Positions 1,960 to 11,299 of a DNA stretch of 64,000 bases are shown one piece after another. Source of the stretch: Hyphomonadaceae bacterium (GTDB taxonomy: Bacteria > Pseudomonadota > Alphaproteobacteria > Caulobacterales > Aquidulcibacteraceae); assembly GCA_016791425.1 (NCBI GenBank), contig JAEUMQ010000009.1, positions 1-64,000 of the forward strand, read 5' to 3'. The notes under the pieces were generated by a model. It saw only the letters and a list, made by a program, of their open reading frames with translations. It searched no databases and had not been told where the DNA came from. The position numbers and the translations under genes were made by a program. The first letter of the stretch is position 1. Every line of letters starts with the position of its first letter.

Positions 1960-4059
1960 TTACCGGCACAATCCGTCGAGCGTGTTGGTGAATGAGCGCG
2001 CGGGCGGAGCAGCGACACCGCGCGCCTGCAGGCGCGCCCCCAGCCCAACCGGCTCGGGCGTCGACGCGGGCGAAACATCGCTCGCATAGGCCGGATCGGC
2101 CGAAGCCTGCGCCAGCGGGACGAAGCGGAAGCCATGTTCCCGGTAGAGCGCCAGAAGCCGCGGCAGCATGCGCGCATTGAACGCGCCGACATGCAGCAGC
2201 GCCACATAGGGGATGTCGCGGCCATAGAGTCGCTTGGCGAGGTCGCGGTCGCGCCGGATGCTTTCGCGCGCCGCTTCCAGGTAGAGCCGCTCCAGCTCGC
2301 CGACCGAAGCCTCATCGTTGCGCCCGCGGCAGCGGGCGTAGGGGCCGTTCCAGAGATAGTCGTCGAAGCTCGTCGTGACGGCGGCGATGCGGTAGCCCCG
2401 CTGCGCCAGCGTGCGGCGCACCGCGGCGCGCTTGCCCGCCTCGTCCCCCTCCGCGAGGAATGGATAACGGAACCAGCGCCAGTCCTTTCCCCGCATTCTG
2501 CGCCGCAGCGGCGGCTCGTTGCGGACGATGTCGCCGATATAGGCCTCCGCCGAGACCTCGTTGAGATTGAGGTGCGACCAGCCGTGATTGCCGAGCGGGT
2601 AGCCCGCGCTCCGCCACGCCTCGAGCGTGTCCCCGAGTTCCGGCTCACGCGCGATCGAGGCGGCGTTGACGAATCCATACGCCTCGCCGACGCCCGCCTC
2701 TTTGAGCGCCGCGGCCATGGATCGGATCGCGCCGAGGCGCGTTTCCCCGTCCGGCAGCGGGCCATGCACGGGAATGTCGTCGAAGGTGAGCGCGATGAGC
2801 GGCGTCCAGTGCGCGGCGAAGAGCTCGAGCGGCACGAGGTTCGCCATCGCCTCGTAGCCCGCGAGGGAAGGGTGCAGCCCGTCGCCGGAATCGAGCGCGC
2901 GCCGCATCTTCGTGGGATCGGCCGGATCGCGCAGCGCCGTGTCGAAATCGATGATCGCGTCGAAGCTGCCGGGCGCGCGGATGAACGCGTTGACGGCCTG
3001 CCGGTCCGCCTCGTTCGCGGCGTCGGGATGGTAATAGCTTGAGGCGCCGTAGGGCGGGATCGTTGCGCCGATCGCAACAATGCCGCGGTCGCGTGCGCGC
3101 GCGACCATCTGGCGGAAGCCGCCGATGAGGTTCTCCACCAGCGCCTGGTGCGCTTCGGGGCCGACCGGCGCATCGCGCGTGAGCGTGCCCAGATCGTTCA
3201 CGCCCTCCAGAACGATCATGTACTTCACGCCCGGCTGCGAGAGCACGTCGCGCTCGAAGCGCGCAAGCGCGTTCGGCCCCAGCTCATCCAGGAGCACGCG
3301 GTTGCCGCCGATCCCGACATTGATCACCGCGAGATTCTGCGTGGCGGCGTTGGCCTGCAGCCGCCGCGCGAGATGATCCGGCCAGCGACGATCCGTATCC
3401 GGCTGAACGCCGTAGCCGTCGGTGATGGAATCCCCCAGTACGACGATCGCCGCCGCGTGCGCGTCGCTCTCCGCCTCCACGCGCGAGAGCTGATACCAGT
3501 GCGCGATCGTCTTGGCGCCGGGCAGATCCTCCGCGCCTGCATGGTCGCCGTGCACGAGATGCGAGGTGGCCCGCGAGCCCGGATGGGACGTCTGCCGCGC
3601 CGGCGGTTCGGGCAGATAGAGCGAGACGGCAAGATGCGACATCGCCGGCGCCGCCAGCGCGATCGGATCAGAAACGTACTCCGCACCGGCCGGAATGGTG
3701 ATGCGGTCGCGCCCCCCGAACGTGACGCGCCGCAGGGTTCCCGCCGCCAGCCGCGCGCTCGCCGGAGCGGCCGAAAGCGCCGCCGTAACCGAACGGACCT
3801 CGAGCGGCGCAGTCCCGAACGCGTTGGAAAGCCGGATCCGCAGCCTTGGCCCCCCGAGCGTCAGCGGCACGATCTGCCGCAGCGTTGCATCGCGCAGATC
3901 CTCCTCCGGCAGCGCATTGCGCGGCTCCGGAACCTGCTGCCCGCTCGCCCAGCTGGCGATCCATTGTGGGGGCGCGGTGCGCTCCTCGGCGGCGGCGTGC
4001 GCTCCGATCCAAACCGCGAGCGCCGCGAGCGCGGCGAGCCATGACCGGGCCGATTTCAT
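1960..4059 (-). CDS. Secreted SGNH hydrolase fused to polysaccharide deacetylase
   Basis: This 699-residue product joins two carbohydrate-esterase-type domains. A signal peptide covers about residues 1-24 (cleavage near AHA). The SGNH/GDSL domain shows GDS at 209-211 (catalytic Ser211), GIGGN at 249-253, GVND at 286-289 and DGLHP at 393-397, giving the Asp/His of the triad. A NodB-type polysaccharide deacetylase domain follows with TFDD at 425-428, a histidine motif NHGWSHLN at 491-498, RYPF at 531-534 and a late LLHVG motif. Known members of these families remove acetyl or other ester groups, or N-acetyl groups, from glycans. The protein probably works in the periplasm or outside the cell. 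A LacI-type operator lies 35 bases before the start. The pairing in one chain is unusual and substrates are unknown. Confidence 0.85.
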   Translation of the reverse strand: MKSARSWLAALAALAVWIGAHAAAEERTAPPQWIASWASGQQVPEPRNALPEEDLRDATLRQIVPLTLGGPRLRIRLSNAFGTAPLEVRSVTAALSAAPASARLAAGTLRRVTFGGRDRITIPAGAEYVSDPIALAAPAMSHLAVSLYLPEPPARQTSHPGSRATSHLVHGDHAGAEDLPGAKTIAHWYQLSRVEAESDAHAAAIVVLGDSITDGYGVQPDTDRRWPDHLARRLQANAATQNLAVINVGIGGNRVLLDELGPNALARFERDVLSQPGVKYMIVLEGVNDLGTLTRDAPVGPEAHQALVENLIGGFRQMVARARDRGIVAIGATIPPYGASSYYHPDAANEADRQAVNAFIRAPGSFDAIIDFDTALRDPADPTKMRRALDSGDGLHPSLAGYEAMANLVPLELFAAHWTPLIALTFDDIPVHGPLPDGETRLGAIRSMAAALKEAGVGEAYGFVNAASIAREPELGDTLEAWRSAGYPLGNHGWSHLNLNEVSAEAYIGDIVRNEPPLRRRMRGKDWRWFRYPFLAEGDEAGKRAAVRRTLAQRGYRIAAVTTSFDDYLWNGPYARCRGRNDEASVGELERLYLEAARESIRRDRDLAKRLYGRDIPYVALLHVGAFNARMLPRLLALYREHGFRFVPLAQASADPAYASDVSPASTPEPVGLGARLQARGVAAPPARSFTNTLDGLCR

Positions 4060-4094
4060 GCGCCCCCTCCCTTCGTGCGACGAGCGTCGTTCTT

Positions 4095-4110
4095 ATGGGA
4101 GCGCTACCAT
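4095..4110. promoter_or_regulatory. LacI-family-type operator palindrome
   Basis: ATGGGAGCGCTACCAT is an almost perfect 16-base palindrome with the AGCGCT centre and TGG/CCA arms typical of LacI-family sugar regulators, such as xylose-type boxes in Caulobacter and Xanthomonas. It sits 35 bases upstream of the SGNH/deacetylase ATG and 74 bases before the divergent HAD gene. Sugar-dependent control of the esterase gene is an inference; no LacI gene is in the window. Confidence 0.5.
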
Positions 4111-4184
4111 AATGGCGTCTGGTTCCCAACCGCCATGGCCATTTCGCATGGATTCTTCGCCCGTTTGTGCTTCGCTGCTGCGTG

Positions 4185-4799
4185 ATGCGCTACCGGCTGA
4201 TCATCTTCGACTTCGACGGCACGCTTGCCGACACCGGCGAGTTCGCCCTGAAGGCGCTCAACGAGGCGGCGAAGAAGTTCCGCTTCCGCCAGGTCAGCAG
4301 GCAAGAGGCCGAGACCCTGCGCGACATGGACAACCGCGCGATCGTCAAGGCGCTGGGCGTGCCGATGTGGAAGCTGCCGATGATCGCGGTCTATGTGCGC
4401 AAGCTCGCCGAGGCCGAGGGCGTCGCGCCGCTTTTTCCTGGCGCGGCCGAGGCCCTGGCGCAGCTGCACGCGCGCGGCGTGAGGCTCGCGATCGTCAGCT
4501 CGAACAGCGAGGCGCACATCCGCCGCGCCCTGGGCGAACGGGCCGCCTTGATCGACTTCTACGCCTGCGAGGCGTCCGTGTTCGGCAAGGCCGCGAAGAT
4601 GAAGCAGGTGCTGAAGCGCCTCCGCGTCCGCCCCGAAGAGACCCTCGCGATCGGCGACGAGACGCGCGACATCGAGGCCGCCCGGCGGCTCGGGATCGCG
4701 GCTGGCGCTGTCGCCTGGGGCTATGCGACCGCCGAGCTGCTGGACTCGCGCGGCCCCGATCATCTCTTCCGCGAGGCGTCGCAGATCGCCGCGCTCTGA
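4185..4799 (+). CDS. HAD-superfamily phosphatase, phosphoglycolate-phosphatase-like
   Basis: A 204-residue haloacid dehalogenase-type hydrolase that would remove phosphate from a small phosphorylated metabolite in the cytoplasm. Motif I is DFDGTL near residue 8 with the aspartate nucleophile. Motif II is the Ser in IVSSNSE, motif III a lysine in KAAKMK, and motif IV GDETRD. The helical cap between motifs I and II is of the short beta-phosphoglucomutase/Gph type. I start at ATG 4185, since the longer reading begins with a poor GTG. It is followed 43 bases later by a convergent tRNA gene. Substrate cannot be assigned. Confidence 0.8.
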   Translation: MRYRLIIFDFDGTLADTGEFALKALNEAAKKFRFRQVSRQEAETLRDMDNRAIVKALGVPMWKLPMIAVYVRKLAEAEGVAPLFPGAAEALAQLHARGVRLAIVSSNSEAHIRRALGERAALIDFYACEASVFGKAAKMKQVLKRLRVRPEETLAIGDETRDIEAARRLGIAAGAVAWGYATAELLDSRGPDHLFREASQIAAL

Positions 4800-4842
4800 C
4801 CTGATTTGACGGGGAAGGATCCCGCAGGGCCAACAATAAGCG

Positions 4843-4917
4843 TGGCTCCCCGGGTAGGATTCGAACCTACGACCAACCGGTTAACAGCCGGTTGCTCTAC
4901 CGCTGAGCTACCGAGGA
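4843..4917 (-). tRNA. tRNA-Asn (GTT)
   Basis: A 75-base cloverleaf on the minus strand. The acceptor stem TCCTCGG pairs with CCGGGGA, the D-loop contains AGCTCAGCGGTAGAGC, the anticodon is GTT in CTGTTAA, the T-loop reads GGTTCGAATCC, and the CCA end is encoded. Confidence 0.95.
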
Positions 4918-5243
4918 ACAGCGCGGAGGCTTCTAACAAGAACCGCCGCGCGGGGAAAGTCCGGTTCGTGGGCCGCCCAAAGCCTCGGGAACCCGAGCCC
5001 AAAGAATCTGAGCCCTGCAAAAAGTCTCGGCCCGGCGAATTTTCCGCTGCCGGCCGCCCAGCCTTAGGCCCCCGGAAAGGCCGAAGCGCCATGATGCTCC
5101 CGGGTCGGCCGCGAAGCCCCAACCGGGATCAATCCCGAGGCTTCTTCTCTCCAGATGTCGTCGCTGGACCCGTTCCTGGTTTCTTAGCCCCGGGAGCGGG
5201 TCCAGGGGACGCGCGAGGGGCTGGCGACGCGTTTCCTAGCCCC

Positions 5244-5274
5244 AAAGAAAAACGGGGCCCCTTTCGGGGCCCCG
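5244..5274 (-). terminator. Rho-independent terminator, minus strand
   Basis: CGGGGCCCC (5253-5261) and GGGGCCCCG (5266-5274) form a 9-base GC-only stem with a TTTC loop. Read on the minus strand it is followed by TTTTTCTTT. It lies about 210 bases after tRNA-Cys and about 60 bases after the CtrA box, so it could end the tRNA-Cys transcript or a short independent RNA. Confidence 0.75.
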
Positions 5275-5336
5275 AAGGCGTTGGGTATGGTGGGGTGTCT
5301 CCAAGGGAAGACAGCGATGAATGTGCCTTTAACCCT

Positions 5337-5351
5337 TTAAACAAAGGTTAA
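5337..5351. promoter_or_regulatory. CtrA binding box, TTAA-N7-TTAA(C)
   Basis: TTAAACAAAGGTTAAC matches the full CtrA consensus TTAA-N7-TTAAC of cell-cycle-regulated alphaproteobacterial promoters. An extra TTAA half-site lies at 5329-5332. The same bases form a small hairpin, TTAACC..GGTTAA. No protein gene starts close by on either strand, so the target is unclear. Confidence 0.5.
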
Positions 5352-5486
5352 CGGCCATAAAGGTCTGATCTGCCAGGATCTTAGGGCTCAGCTGAGGCCG
5401 CGACTCACACCCCGAAGAGGCGAATCCGGGCCGGCTTTCACCCCTGAATCGTCCGCGCGGCGCGAGTCGGTGGAATCGGAAGGGCT

Positions 5487-5560
5487 TGGAGGCCTCGCCC
5501 GGAATCGAACCGGGGTGCACGGATTTGCAGTCCGCTGCGTCACCACTCCGCCACGAGGCC
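5487..5560 (-). tRNA. tRNA-Cys (GCA)
   Basis: A 74-base minus-strand cloverleaf. The acceptor stem GGCCTCG pairs with CGAGGCC, the anticodon is GCA in ACTGCAAAT, the T-arm reads GGTTCGATTCC, and the CCA end is encoded. It lies 89 bases after the stop of the acyl-CoA dehydrogenase gene on the same strand. Confidence 0.95.
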
Positions 5561-5648
5561 GTCAAGCCGTCCCCGCCGGGGGCCGTCCTGAGGGGGTCTG
5601 CGATATCGGTCCCTCCCGCCAAGCGCAAGGCGCGCGCGGCCGAAAGCC

Positions 5649-6812
5649 TCAAAGCGTCCGCGCGATCAGCAGCTTCATGATCTCGTTCGTGCCGCCATAG
5701 ATGCGGTTCACGCGCGCGTCCTTGTAGGCCTGCGCGATCGGGTACTCGTTCATGTAGCCGAAGCCGCCGAAGAATTGCAGGCACTCATCGACGATCCGGC
5801 AATGCAGGTCCGTCACCCAATACTTCGCCATCGACGCTGTGGCGCTGTCGAGCGTGCTCGCGACGAGCCGCTCGGTGCAATGGTGGCAGAACACCTGCGC
5901 GATGGTGGCCTCGGTCTTCAGCTCCGCGAGCTTGAACTGCGTGTTCTGGAACTCGAGGATCGGTTTGCCGAACGCCTTGCGCTCCTTGACGTAATCGATC
6001 GTGAGCGAAAGCGCGTACTCGATCGCCGCCATGCTCTGCAGCGCGATCAGCAGGCGCTCCTGCGGCAGCTTCTGCATCAGCTGCGCGAAGCCCATGCCTT
6101 CGCCGCCCCCGAGCAGGTTCGCGGCCGGAACCCGGACGTCGTTGAAGAAGAGCTCTGAGGTATCGGCCAGATCGCGCCCGATTTTGTCGAGGTTGCGCCC
6201 GCGTTCGAAGCCCGCCGCGTCGGCGGTTTCGAGCGCCAGCAGTGAAATGCCCTTGGCGCCGAGGCTGGTGTCGGTCTTGGCGACGACGATGACGAGATCG
6301 GCGTTCTGGCCGTTGGTGATGAAGGTCTTGGCGCCGTTGAGGATGTAGTGATCGCCGTCCTTGCGCGCGGACGTGCGCACGCCCTGAAGGTCTGAGCCGG
6401 CGCCGGGCTCGGTCATCGCGATCGCGGTGATGAGCTCGCCGGTCGCCAGCTTGGGCAGCCAGCGCCGCTTCTGCTCCTCGGTTCCGAAGCTCTCCAGATA
6501 GGGCGCAACGATCGCGTTGTGCAGCGCGATGTCCCAGCCCTCGATGCCGCGCCGGCCAAGCTCGCGGATGAGGATCGCCTCGTGACGGAAATCGCCGCCG
6601 ACGCCGCCATAATCCGCGGACGTCGAAAGCGCGAGGAGGCCGGCTTGTCCGGCCGCGCGCCAAGCGCTCTTCGGAACGATGCCGTCTTCGCGCCACCGCC
6701 CCACCGCCGACGGCGGCGCCTGCTCGTCGAGGAAGCGTCCGACGCTGTCGGCGAAAAGAGTGAATTCCTCGTCCGCCATGAAGGCGGGAACGGGCACATC
6801 GAGCACGCGCAT
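5649..6812 (-). CDS. Acyl-CoA dehydrogenase
   Basis: A 387-residue FAD flavoenzyme that introduces the alpha,beta double bond into an acyl-CoA, passing electrons to ETF. Family signatures are TEPGAGSDLQG (134-144), the FAD region ITNGQNADL, and the C-terminal IYGGTNEI. The position that carries the catalytic Glu in medium-chain enzymes is Gly here (YGGT). As in long-chain and isovaleryl-type members, the base is probably the earlier Glu265 (AAIEYA, just before VKERKAFGKP). The start is ATG 6812; an in-frame ATG at residue 12 is also possible. Its neighbours do not form a beta-oxidation operon, so the acyl substrate is open. Confidence 0.9.
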   Translation of the reverse strand: MRVLDVPVPAFMADEEFTLFADSVGRFLDEQAPPSAVGRWREDGIVPKSAWRAAGQAGLLALSTSADYGGVGGDFRHEAILIRELGRRGIEGWDIALHNAIVAPYLESFGTEEQKRRWLPKLATGELITAIAMTEPGAGSDLQGVRTSARKDGDHYILNGAKTFITNGQNADLVIVVAKTDTSLGAKGISLLALETADAAGFERGRNLDKIGRDLADTSELFFNDVRVPAANLLGGGEGMGFAQLMQKLPQERLLIALQSMAAIEYALSLTIDYVKERKAFGKPILEFQNTQFKLAELKTEATIAQVFCHHCTERLVASTLDSATASMAKYWVTDLHCRIVDECLQFFGGFGYMNEYPIAQAYKDARVNRIYGGTNEIMKLLIARTL

Positions 6813-6874
6813 GCACGTTCTTTAGAGCTTTTCACCGCTCATTGGAATTTCACGCCAGGGAAACCCGAAAAAGC

Positions 6875-7393
6875 TCAGCCGCTGCTGCCGTAGCGGGCCA
6901 TCCGCGCGACGCGCTCCAGCTCGGCCTCGACTTGCGCCTCCACGATCGTGCGGAGGTTCTCGTCGAGCCATTCCTTCAGCATCGGCTTCAAGAGCTCGCG
7001 CACCACCCCTTCGACCGTCTGGCCGGGCGATTCCGCGATGCGCAGCGCGCTGGCGAGCTTGGTGAGCGCGCCCGAAGCGGCCGCGGCGGTGGCGCGCGCG
7101 ACGATCGTCTCGGCCGCTTGCGGAACCGGCGCAGGCGCCGGCGCGGCGGCCATCGGCTGCGCATAAGGCGGCGGCGCTTGCGGAGCGGGCGCGGCGGCGC
7201 GCGGCGCAGGCGGCTGCGGCGCCGGGGCGTCGAACACGAGCAGGTCCTCAGCGCTCTGCTGCGGCTCGGCCTGCTGCGTCAGATCGAGCACTTCCGGCGC
7301 GGGCTCGCTCGATTCCTCTTCCGAGATGATCCGGCGGATCGAGGCCAGGATCTCCTCCATGGAGGGTTCGGGCTGCAATTGCGGCTGTGGCAT
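6875..7393 (-). CDS. popZ: PopZ-type polar organising protein (DUF2497)
   Basis: A 172-residue protein with the PopZ layout. It has a short conserved N-terminal helix (PSMEEILASIRRIISEEE), a long Pro/Ala/Gln-rich disordered middle (about residues 40-110), and C-terminal helices that drive oligomerisation (VVRELLKPMLKEWLDENL). In Caulobacter this protein forms a matrix at cell poles and anchors ParB-parS and cell-cycle kinases. The start MPQPQ at 7393 fits the family; the frame stays open further upstream but without family similarity. The close link to valS is the usual alphaproteobacterial arrangement, though here a Pcm-like gene lies between them. Confidence 0.9.
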   Translation of the reverse strand: MPQPQLQPEPSMEEILASIRRIISEEESSEPAPEVLDLTQQAEPQQSAEDLLVFDAPAPQPPAPRAAAPAPQAPPPYAQPMAAAPAPAPVPQAAETIVARATAAAASGALTKLASALRIAESPGQTVEGVVRELLKPMLKEWLDENLRTIVEAQVEAELERVARMARYGSSG

Positions 7394-7652
7394 TGGCGAA
7401 CGTGCCCCCCAAACTTGGTCCAGCTGTCTGGCCCGACGGCCGCTATGGCCTGACGACCGTCGGACGATCTCGGCGCGAACCTCGGCCCCCCGTGATTCGA
7501 CCTCACGAAAATACCGGTCCGCGGCGCAGCCCGTCCACGCGCCAGCGGACCCTCTATGTGGATTCGCCAGAATCGAACGGCTGCGTGCTGTGGATGCTGC
7601 CGTCACTCCGATAAGGAGGTCTTAACGCCTTGGGTTAAATCCCGGGCCGGCT

Positions 7653-8449: not shown

Positions 8450-11299
<2,850 letters not shown>

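What the first reader, a model, noticed from the sequence alone, without database searches (positions are those of the whole stretch)
5244..5351. CtrA box with no gene: possible cell-cycle-controlled small RNA
A consensus TTAA-N7-TTAAC box with an extra half-site lies in a gene-free interval. About 60 bases away on the minus strand is a strong GC stem with a T run. A short minus-strand RNA of roughly 70-90 bases between them would be under cell-cycle control. Alternatively the box regulates the tRNA-Asn transcript or is a replication-linked site.
Basis: partly seen in the sequence, partly recalled or inferred. Interest (0 to 1): 0.5.

Follow-up and report, generated by a model that had tools for sequence, protein, structure and literature searches.

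The report
Conserved small RNA under CtrA box
Between two tRNA genes lies what looks like a real gene for a tiny regulatory RNA, about 66 letters long, whose switch carries the binding site of the cell-cycle controller CtrA; RNA and switch are kept together in most sampled relatives of Caulobacter, and we know of no function for it.

Summary
The minus strand of 5351-5247 encodes a compact small RNA: a CtrA-type box (TTAA-N7-TTAA, 5337-5351), a -10-like element, then about 66 nt made of a 5' hairpin, a nearly invariant C-rich strand (ACACCCCACCAUACCC) and a covarying terminator hairpin. A covariance model built in the window's family finds the RNA in 248 of 299 genomes of the order (195 of 239 outside that family) and in 14 sampled genomes outside the order, one doubtful. 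Of 163 distinct homologous loci, 103 have a perfect TTAA-N7-TTAA and 157 at least 7 of 8 bases, nearly all at the same distance; random stretches of such loci gave 0 perfect in 14,725. The RNA usually sits before tRNA-Asn, but copies with no tRNA nearby, or with tRNA-Asn reversed, keep the box. It is homologous, through intermediates, to Caulobacter RNA CC0196 (Rfam RF01519), whose model is too narrow to recognise the window copy. Inferred, not shown: transcription here, activation by CtrA, cell-cycle timing, base-pairing. Targets were sought without a convincing result. Moderate interest: an order-wide CtrA-box RNA with no known function.

The parts
5337..5351 (-). CtrA-type box TTAA-N7-TTAA (read along the RNA strand: TTAACCTTTGTTTAA), at -39 to -25 from the G at 5312
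   Evidence: perfect in 103 of 163 distinct homologous loci, at least 7/8 in 157 of 163, nearly all at -38 to -40
5329..5332 (.). extra TTAA half-site, 4 bases from the box on the RNA side
   Evidence: many close relatives have GGTTA at this place (by eye)
5320..5325 (-). -10-like hexamer CACATT
   Evidence: in 118 divergent promoters the hexamer at -12..-7 has A at its position 2 in 81% and T at its position 6 in 72%; in the window it sits one base further out, as does the box
5247..5313 (-). small RNA of about 65-67 nt (5' end at about 5313/5312; 3' end inferred from the T run)
   Evidence: 85.6 bits; fold z-score -4.48
5296..5313 (-). 5' hairpin UGUCUUC-CCUU-GGAGACA
   Evidence: 91.9% of cells paired in A2, but little covariation because it hardly varies
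5275..5295 (-). single-stranded C-rich linker CCCCACCAUACCCAACGCCUU. Together with the end of the hairpin it holds the conserved core: GACACC, then one more C (87 of 92 rows), then CACCA and a T (the other positions 92 of 92)
5253..5274 (-). terminator hairpin, followed by the T run 5252-5248
   Evidence: 10 of 10 stem pairs of the consensus have changes on both sides across 88 distinct rows
4843..4917 (-). tRNA-Asn (neighbour, downstream, same strand)
   Evidence: co-oriented within 600 nt in 107 of 112 homologous loci with enough flank
5487..5560 (-). tRNA-Cys (neighbour, upstream, same strand)
   Evidence: co-oriented within 600 nt in 61 of 120 homologous loci with enough flank

Best explanation
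It is a stand-alone gene for a short trans-acting small RNA, homologous to Caulobacter CC0196, transcribed on the minus strand from a CtrA-dependent promoter. SHOWN by comparison of sequences: RNA, promoter box, their spacing, a -10-like element and the terminator are conserved together. INFERRED: phosphorylated CtrA binds the box, which covers the -35 region (-39 to -25), and recruits RNA polymerase. The RNA starts at about 5313/5312 and ends in the T run after the hairpin at 5274-5253. It should therefore rise when CtrA~P is high (swarmer and predivisional cells) and fall in S phase. LESS SURE: the 5' hairpin and terminator protect the RNA, and the invariant strand ACACCCCACCAU base-pairs with G-rich stretches of mRNAs, most likely near ribosome-binding sites, to lower their translation.
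For: Homologs in 49 of 60 genomes of the family by DNA, 248 of 299 of the order by RNA model (53 of 60 in the family that supplied the model, 195 of 239 outside it), and 17 of 289 of a class sample, 14 of them outside the order, one doubtful. Covariation on 88 distinct rows: 326 cells changed on both sides against 122.8 in shuffles and 29-140 in slid controls. Box: 103 of 163 perfect against 0.16 expected from shuffles; other spacers (N3-N6, N8-N12) give 0-3 perfect. In a hand-chosen set found without promoter DNA, 61 of 61 have at least 7/8 and 45 are perfect. Random windows of the loci: 0 perfect of 14,725, 0.55% with 7/8 or more. Of its five other places with TTAA-N7-TTAAC one lies about 110 nt upstream of mipZ and one about 450 nt past the end of a flagellin-family gene; mipZ is named among CtrA-motif promoters in Caulobacter (PMC4287350, passage seen).
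Against: No transcript has been measured in this organism. The box is a sequence match, and CtrA can repress as well as activate. 51 of 299 genomes of the order gave no match (40 of the 267 of good quality). In the same-genus genome G011, which has the RNA (L011), no CtrA was found at E 1e-60 (an assembly gap is possible). No convincing target: apart from the gene itself a 12-base complement occurs only twice, with one mismatch; the short-complement search hit a dispersed repeat more than genes; the three ctrA leaders printed show no GGTGGGG. CCNA_R0004, which may be CC0196, is scored with one half and no full CtrA site, has low levels (2-13) and no cell-cycle phase assigned, although labelled 'Cell cycle regulated' (PMC5988900).
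Confidence: 0.8

Rival explanations
1. The box belongs to tRNA-Asn: the element is the leader or attenuator of a tRNA-Asn transcript, so CtrA tunes tRNA-Asn.
For: Co-oriented tRNA-Asn follows within 600 nt in 107 of 112 loci, median 167 nt from the RNA 5' end.
Against: A terminator stands between box and tRNA. L050/L145 (0 tRNAs in 8000 bases) and L051 (0 in 701 bases) have RNA and box; L101 and L110 have tRNA-Asn on the opposite strand; in L099, L100, L129 and L239 it lies about 630-1260 nt away (boxes of L050, L051, L099, L100, L101 and L110 printed). The linker is more conserved than a passive leader would need.
Confidence: 0.07
2. CtrA represses rather than activates: the promoter is shut when CtrA~P binds over -35, so the RNA peaks in S phase.
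For: A box over -35 is compatible with either sign; activator and repressor groups of CtrA sites are described in Caulobacter (PMC4287350 passage).
Against: The base profile shows no separate -35 element; the box itself lies there in all 118 divergent promoters, the arrangement usual for CtrA-activated promoters (recalled).
Confidence: 0.18
3. The RNA works by sequestering a protein through its invariant C-rich strand, not by pairing with mRNAs.
For: The core is nearly invariant, and long complementary sites were not found in the genome.
Against: Pairing seeds of small RNAs can be this conserved and need only 7-9 bases (recalled); no protein partner is known to me.
Confidence: 0.2
4. Only a terminator of the tRNA-Cys transcript plus a chance box; no separate RNA gene.
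For: tRNA-Cys lies upstream on the same strand in the window and in many relatives.
Against: Co-oriented tRNA-Cys is not found within 600 nt in 59 of 120 loci; the hairpin and linker before the terminator are the most conserved part.
Confidence: 0.02

Closest known systems
Caulobacter small RNA CC0196 (Rfam RF01519)
   Same: Eight of 12 loci scanned match both my model and RF01519: L105 65.7, L106 61.7, L104 52.4, L109 40.9, L107 40.3, L110 39.1, L101 36.0 bits (cut-off 35) and L108 34.2; the other four (L087, L089, L091, L093, from outside the order) had no RF01519 match at E 0.01. Same layout: hairpin, CACCCCACCAUCAC core, terminator.
   Different: The window copy itself scores only 16.4 bits, and RF01519 does not report it in its own genome even at E 1. 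The family is far wider than the Rfam model. I found no function for CC0196 in the papers held.
CcnA (CCNA_R0094) of Caulobacter crescentus
   Different: CcnA is 182 nt and lies at the replication origin; this RNA is predicted at about 66 nt and lies beside tRNA genes. The two sequences were not compared directly, and the distance of the window to its origin was not tested.
suhB/mmgR small RNA (RF00519)
   Same: Similar plan: 5' hairpin, C-rich strand, terminator.
   Different: 18.4 bits against a cut-off of 41; not a member.

Membership tests
CC0196 / RF01519 | Score at or above the Rfam gathering score (35 bits) for the window copy | tested here: not met
   16.4 bits; not among the three matches of the genome search at E 1
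CC0196 / RF01519 | Homology through intermediates: loci that match both my model (with the window) and RF01519 | tested here: met
   7 loci at or above 35 bits and one at 34.2, of 12 scanned; all 8 also match R2
CC0196 / RF01519 | Same gene place in these loci, beside tRNA-Asn | tested here: met
   tRNA-Asn next to the RNA in L104-L110 and L101, on the opposite strand in L110 and L101
CC0196 / RF01519 | Same gene place as the C. crescentus type locus | not tested
   that genome was not held by name; CCNA_R0004 is described between CCNA_00197 and CCNA_00196, 133 nt, and its identity with CC0196 is my inference
CtrA-regulated promoter | TTAA-N7-TTAA box near -35 | tested here: met
CtrA-regulated promoter | CtrA encoded in the genome | tested here: met
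   86% identity over 201 aa in G000; found in 3 of 4 genomes searched, not in G011
CtrA-regulated promoter | CtrA binding and dependence in vivo | not testable with these tools
   needs ChIP or CtrA depletion
CcnA | RNA of about 182 nt | tested here: not met
   predicted about 66 nt; CcnA length from passages of PMC8959179
CcnA | gene at the replication origin | not tested
   origin of this genome not located
suhB/mmgR RF00519 | Rfam gathering score 41 | tested here: not met
   18.4 bits
base-pairing small RNA | defined mRNA targets | tested here: inconclusive
   searches gave no convincing target

The most novel reading that the evidence does not exclude
A core, ancient output of the CtrA circuit: one short RNA, with its CtrA box at a fixed distance, kept since before Caulobacterales split from Micropepsales-like lineages, giving the cell cycle a conserved post-transcriptional arm through an order-wide invariant seed.
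Probability: 0.5. Interest if true: 0.75.

Novelty: new member of a known kind. Interest (0 to 1): 0.55.

Why it matters
CtrA is a classic bacterial cell-cycle regulator, and its regulon is described mostly as proteins. An RNA kept in most sampled genera of the order together with its CtrA box is a strong, testable candidate for a general RNA branch of that circuit. It also shows that Rfam's CC0196 is a small corner of a much wider family, so the gene is likely to be missing from the annotation of many genomes.

Tried and rejected
Targets by long complement: ATGGTGGGGTGT with up to one mismatch in the own genome gave the gene itself and two others; not pursued.

Targets by short complement before ATG: GGTGGGGT-N0-14-ATG gave 19, 12 and 21 matches in three genomes against 1, 5 and 2 for the pattern read backwards, which looked like enrichment, although the backward pattern (GTA for ATG) is an imperfect control. 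One search printed 49 contexts of these 52 places: one place (G012:C52) was never fetched, L286 was not printed by the script, and L303 stands for two overlapping places. By eye, at least 11 of the 49 lie in one dispersed repeat (CCCCT...GAGGGGAGGGG...GGGTGGGG) and about four more in another (AGGGTG...GACGGGTGGGGT). Many ATGs open only short frames; a few, such as those of L291, L304 and L312, may begin real genes. Whether any recurs between genomes was not tested. Rejected as evidence of targets, not excluded.

A CcnA-like action on ctrA or gcrA: no GGTGGGG in the three ctrA leaders printed; of the four gcrA loci given only one leader (L262) was printed. Not supported, not excluded.

Rfam match to an alphaproteobacterial L2 leader on the plus strand (19.8 bits, cut-off 37.8): below threshold and on the strand opposite the conserved RNA; set aside.

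CC0196 = CCNA_R0004: suggested by name and by the place between CCNA_00197 and CCNA_00196 (PMC6237742, Table 1 passage), but R0004 is given as 133 nt with a start at 210993, while in single-contig chromosomes of genus g23 the RNA lies elsewhere (for example 1.79 Mb of 4.14 Mb; contig starts may be arbitrary). Left open. The 2008 paper that described these RNAs was not held.

First model R1 had no terminator pairs and was replaced by R2. The first family search used DNA that included the promoter, so box counts were repeated on loci found by RNA alone. No match on plasmids.

Full report
THE OBSERVATION. The window has one TTAA-N7-TTAA, at 5337-5351, against none in 100 shuffles, and one terminator-like hairpin in 4000-7000, on the minus strand at 5274-5253 with a T run; the shuffles average 2.9 such hairpins. 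They lie between tRNA-Asn (4843-4917) and tRNA-Cys (5487-5560), both on the minus strand. At gathering thresholds Rfam finds only tRNAs in the window. The own genome (4.36 Mb) has eight matches to TTAA-N7-TTAAC at six places, against one for the pattern read backwards.

CONSERVATION OF AN RNA. A DNA search of the family with 5240-5486 found the region in 49 of 60 genomes. What is shared is not the whole interval but mainly its minus-strand part from 5313 downwards, mostly 81-97% identical in the loci returned and down to 74% in the weakest rows. Oriented sequences show GTCTTC-loop-GGAGAC or GAAGAC, then ACCCCACCATACCC, then a GC-rich hairpin of changing sequence and a T run. From 30 sequences of the family (A1) I built a covariance model with both helices (R2; the first one, R1, lacked the terminator). 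R2 finds the RNA in 248 of 299 genomes drawn from the order and 49 of 54 genera: 53 of 60 in the window's family, 195 of 239 outside it; among good-quality genomes 227 of 267. It finds it in 17 of 289 genomes of a class sample, 14 of them outside the order, of which L102 is a partial, doubtful match, and in 53 of 75 genomes of the genus of G188 (g23). Searches over 40 genomes use stricter filters, so misses are not proof of absence.

NAMES. It includes Aquidulcibacter paucihalophilus TH1-2, a Terricaulis MAG, Candidatus Phycosocius spiralis, Hyphomonas, Hirschia, Ponticaulis, Phenylobacterium, Caulobacter sp. CCUG 60055 and Rhizomicrobium electricum. Genus g23 was never named; I take it for Caulobacter because RF01519 scores highest there (inference). 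NCBI places Aquidulcibacter and Terricaulis in Caulobacterales and Rhizomicrobium in Micropepsales. Two pattern hits in MAGs labelled Opitutaceae and Planctomycetota (L215, L216) are probably binning errors (inference).

STRUCTURE. The window RNA folds at -29.8 kcal/mol, z -4.48, none of 200 shuffles as good. On 92 homologs that I chose by hand from the loci held and aligned to R2 (A2, 88 distinct; an alignment fitted to the structure), 91.2% of cells pair, against 69.1% in shuffles and 46-53% when slid; 326 cells changed on both sides against 122.8; all ten terminator pairs have such changes. On the unfitted MAFFT alignment A1 the excess was smaller: 80.6% paired against 75.0%, 35 cells against 17.7, and the count of pairs with such changes (9) was reached by 61 of 500 shuffles. 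The 5' hairpin hardly varies, so its support is the fold itself. In A2 the positions GACACC, then CACCA and a T, are the same in 92 of 92 rows, and the extra C between them in 87. ATG occurs in 11 of 92 rows and not in the window RNA, so a conserved peptide is unlikely.

THE PROMOTER. One search took every locus then held (from L009 on) whose RNA matched an exact-core regular expression with at least 100 nt upstream: 163 distinct upstream-plus-RNA sequences. 103 have a perfect TTAA-N7-TTAA, 54 have 7 of 8, 6 have 6 of 8. Of the 157, starts fall at -38 (103), -39 (39), -40 (12) and elsewhere (3). Shuffles give 0.16 perfect and 4.1 with 7. Changing the spacer to 3-6 or 8-12 gives at most 3 perfect. 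Among 118 sequences less than 70% alike, 79 are perfect and all 118 have at least 7 of 8. In A2, 91 rows have 60 nt upstream: all have at least 7 of 8, 61 perfect. Restricting A2 to loci found by RNA alone leaves 61: all with at least 7 of 8, 45 perfect. In 14,725 random 60-nt windows of the same loci none was perfect and 0.55% had 7 or more. A -10-like hexamer (A at position 2 in 81%, T at position 6 in 72%) occupies -12 to -7 relative to the G of GUCUUC, which puts the start near that G and the box over -35. In the window box and hexamer are both one base further out.

IS THE MOTIF CtrA HERE? GcrA is found in all four. Of the five other TTAA-N7-TTAAC places, one lies about 110 nt upstream of mipZ (PF09140, E 1.6e-102), one about 80 nt upstream of a GGDEF protein, one about 450 nt past the end of a flagellin-family gene (PF00700), and two inside the mechanical 5' ends of frames for a response regulator and an AIR carboxylase. 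That fits a CtrA regulon in part but does not prove binding.

NEIGHBOURS. Among 172 distinct loci, co-oriented tRNA-Asn follows within 600 nt in 107 of the 112 with enough flank; tRNA-Cys precedes within 600 nt in 61 of 120. The exceptions matter: copies with no tRNA found (L050, whose 8 kb contig piece is L145; L051, 701 bases only), tRNA-Asn reversed (L101, L110), and distant tRNA-Asn (L099, L100, L129, L239) keep the RNA; the boxes of L050, L051, L099, L100, L101 and L110 were printed and score 7 or 8 of 8. L215 also shows no tRNA but may be a contaminant. So the unit is the box plus RNA, not the tRNA.

KNOWN RELATIVE. Eight loci (genera g16, g23, g25, g31) match both R2 and Rfam CC0196 (RF01519), up to 65.7 bits; seven pass the cut-off of 35 and L108 has 34.2; four loci from outside the order do not match at E 0.01. 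The window copy scores 16.4 bits and is not reported by RF01519 in its own genome. I therefore call it a homolog of CC0196 by intermediates, not an RF01519 hit. In the literature held, RF01519 is named in no paper and the first 20 of 102 listings for CC0196 were noise. CCNA_R0004 carries the label 'Cell cycle regulated' but low levels and no assigned phase (PMC5988900, tables read), and was induced 3.7-fold by mitomycin C (PMC6237742, Table 1 passage). It lies between CCNA_00197 and CCNA_00196 and may be CC0196, but its listed 133 nt and its place do not agree neatly with the loci here, so I do not lean on it. That I know of no order-wide description rests only on the searches.

TARGETS. None convincing; see Tried and rejected.

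VERDICT. Existence of the RNA gene: about 0.95. CtrA-type control: about 0.85, activation about 0.75. mRNA base-pairing: about 0.6. The finding turns a speculative note into a concrete, widely conserved gene; it is a wider and better-defined version of a known but, as far as I could see, uncharacterised Caulobacter RNA.

Noticed in passing
window 8450-11299 (about 9820-9980): The valS reading frame carries an in-frame insertion of about 50 residues (PPSPRGEGAGGG...PPSPSSQGEG) that is absent from the valS-like frame of L256 (compared by eye). It resembles the frames of the dispersed GC-rich repeat seen. Borders not mapped.
   Followed up: partly
own genome and G012, loci (e.g. L278, L290, L301, L314): A dispersed repeat with CCCCT...GAGGGGAGGGG...GGGTGGGG recurs; it produces false 'target' hits for the RNA's C-rich core.
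   Followed up: partly
window 6875-7606 (minus), L256:2925-3464: A DUF2497 protein (PF10691) that looks like PopZ (recalled) and a protein-isoaspartate methyltransferase lie near the RNA here; similar frames lie near it in L256 (by eye). The RNA's wider neighbourhood is partly conserved.
   Followed up: partly
L321 (contig filed as viral), 1-1571: A 10 kb contig looks like a prophage end: an integrase-like frame abuts what looks like the 3' part of a tRNA-Cys, followed by the box, this RNA and tRNA-Asn (integrase and tRNA-Cys part judged by eye). The neighbouring tRNA-Cys may be a phage insertion site.
   Followed up: partly
G000:C20:41172-41624 (L266), G011:C37:13955-14377 (L267): A second GcrA-type frame exists in the own genome and in a same-genus genome, each with one stop reported inside the matched stretch.
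   Followed up: no
window 1960-4059 (minus): A single frame joins a GDSL lipase domain to a polysaccharide deacetylase domain.
   Followed up: no
L246, L247, L249, L250, L252, L254, L255: Seven of 13 loci scanned have two tandem tRNA-Asn genes beside the RNA.
   Followed up: no
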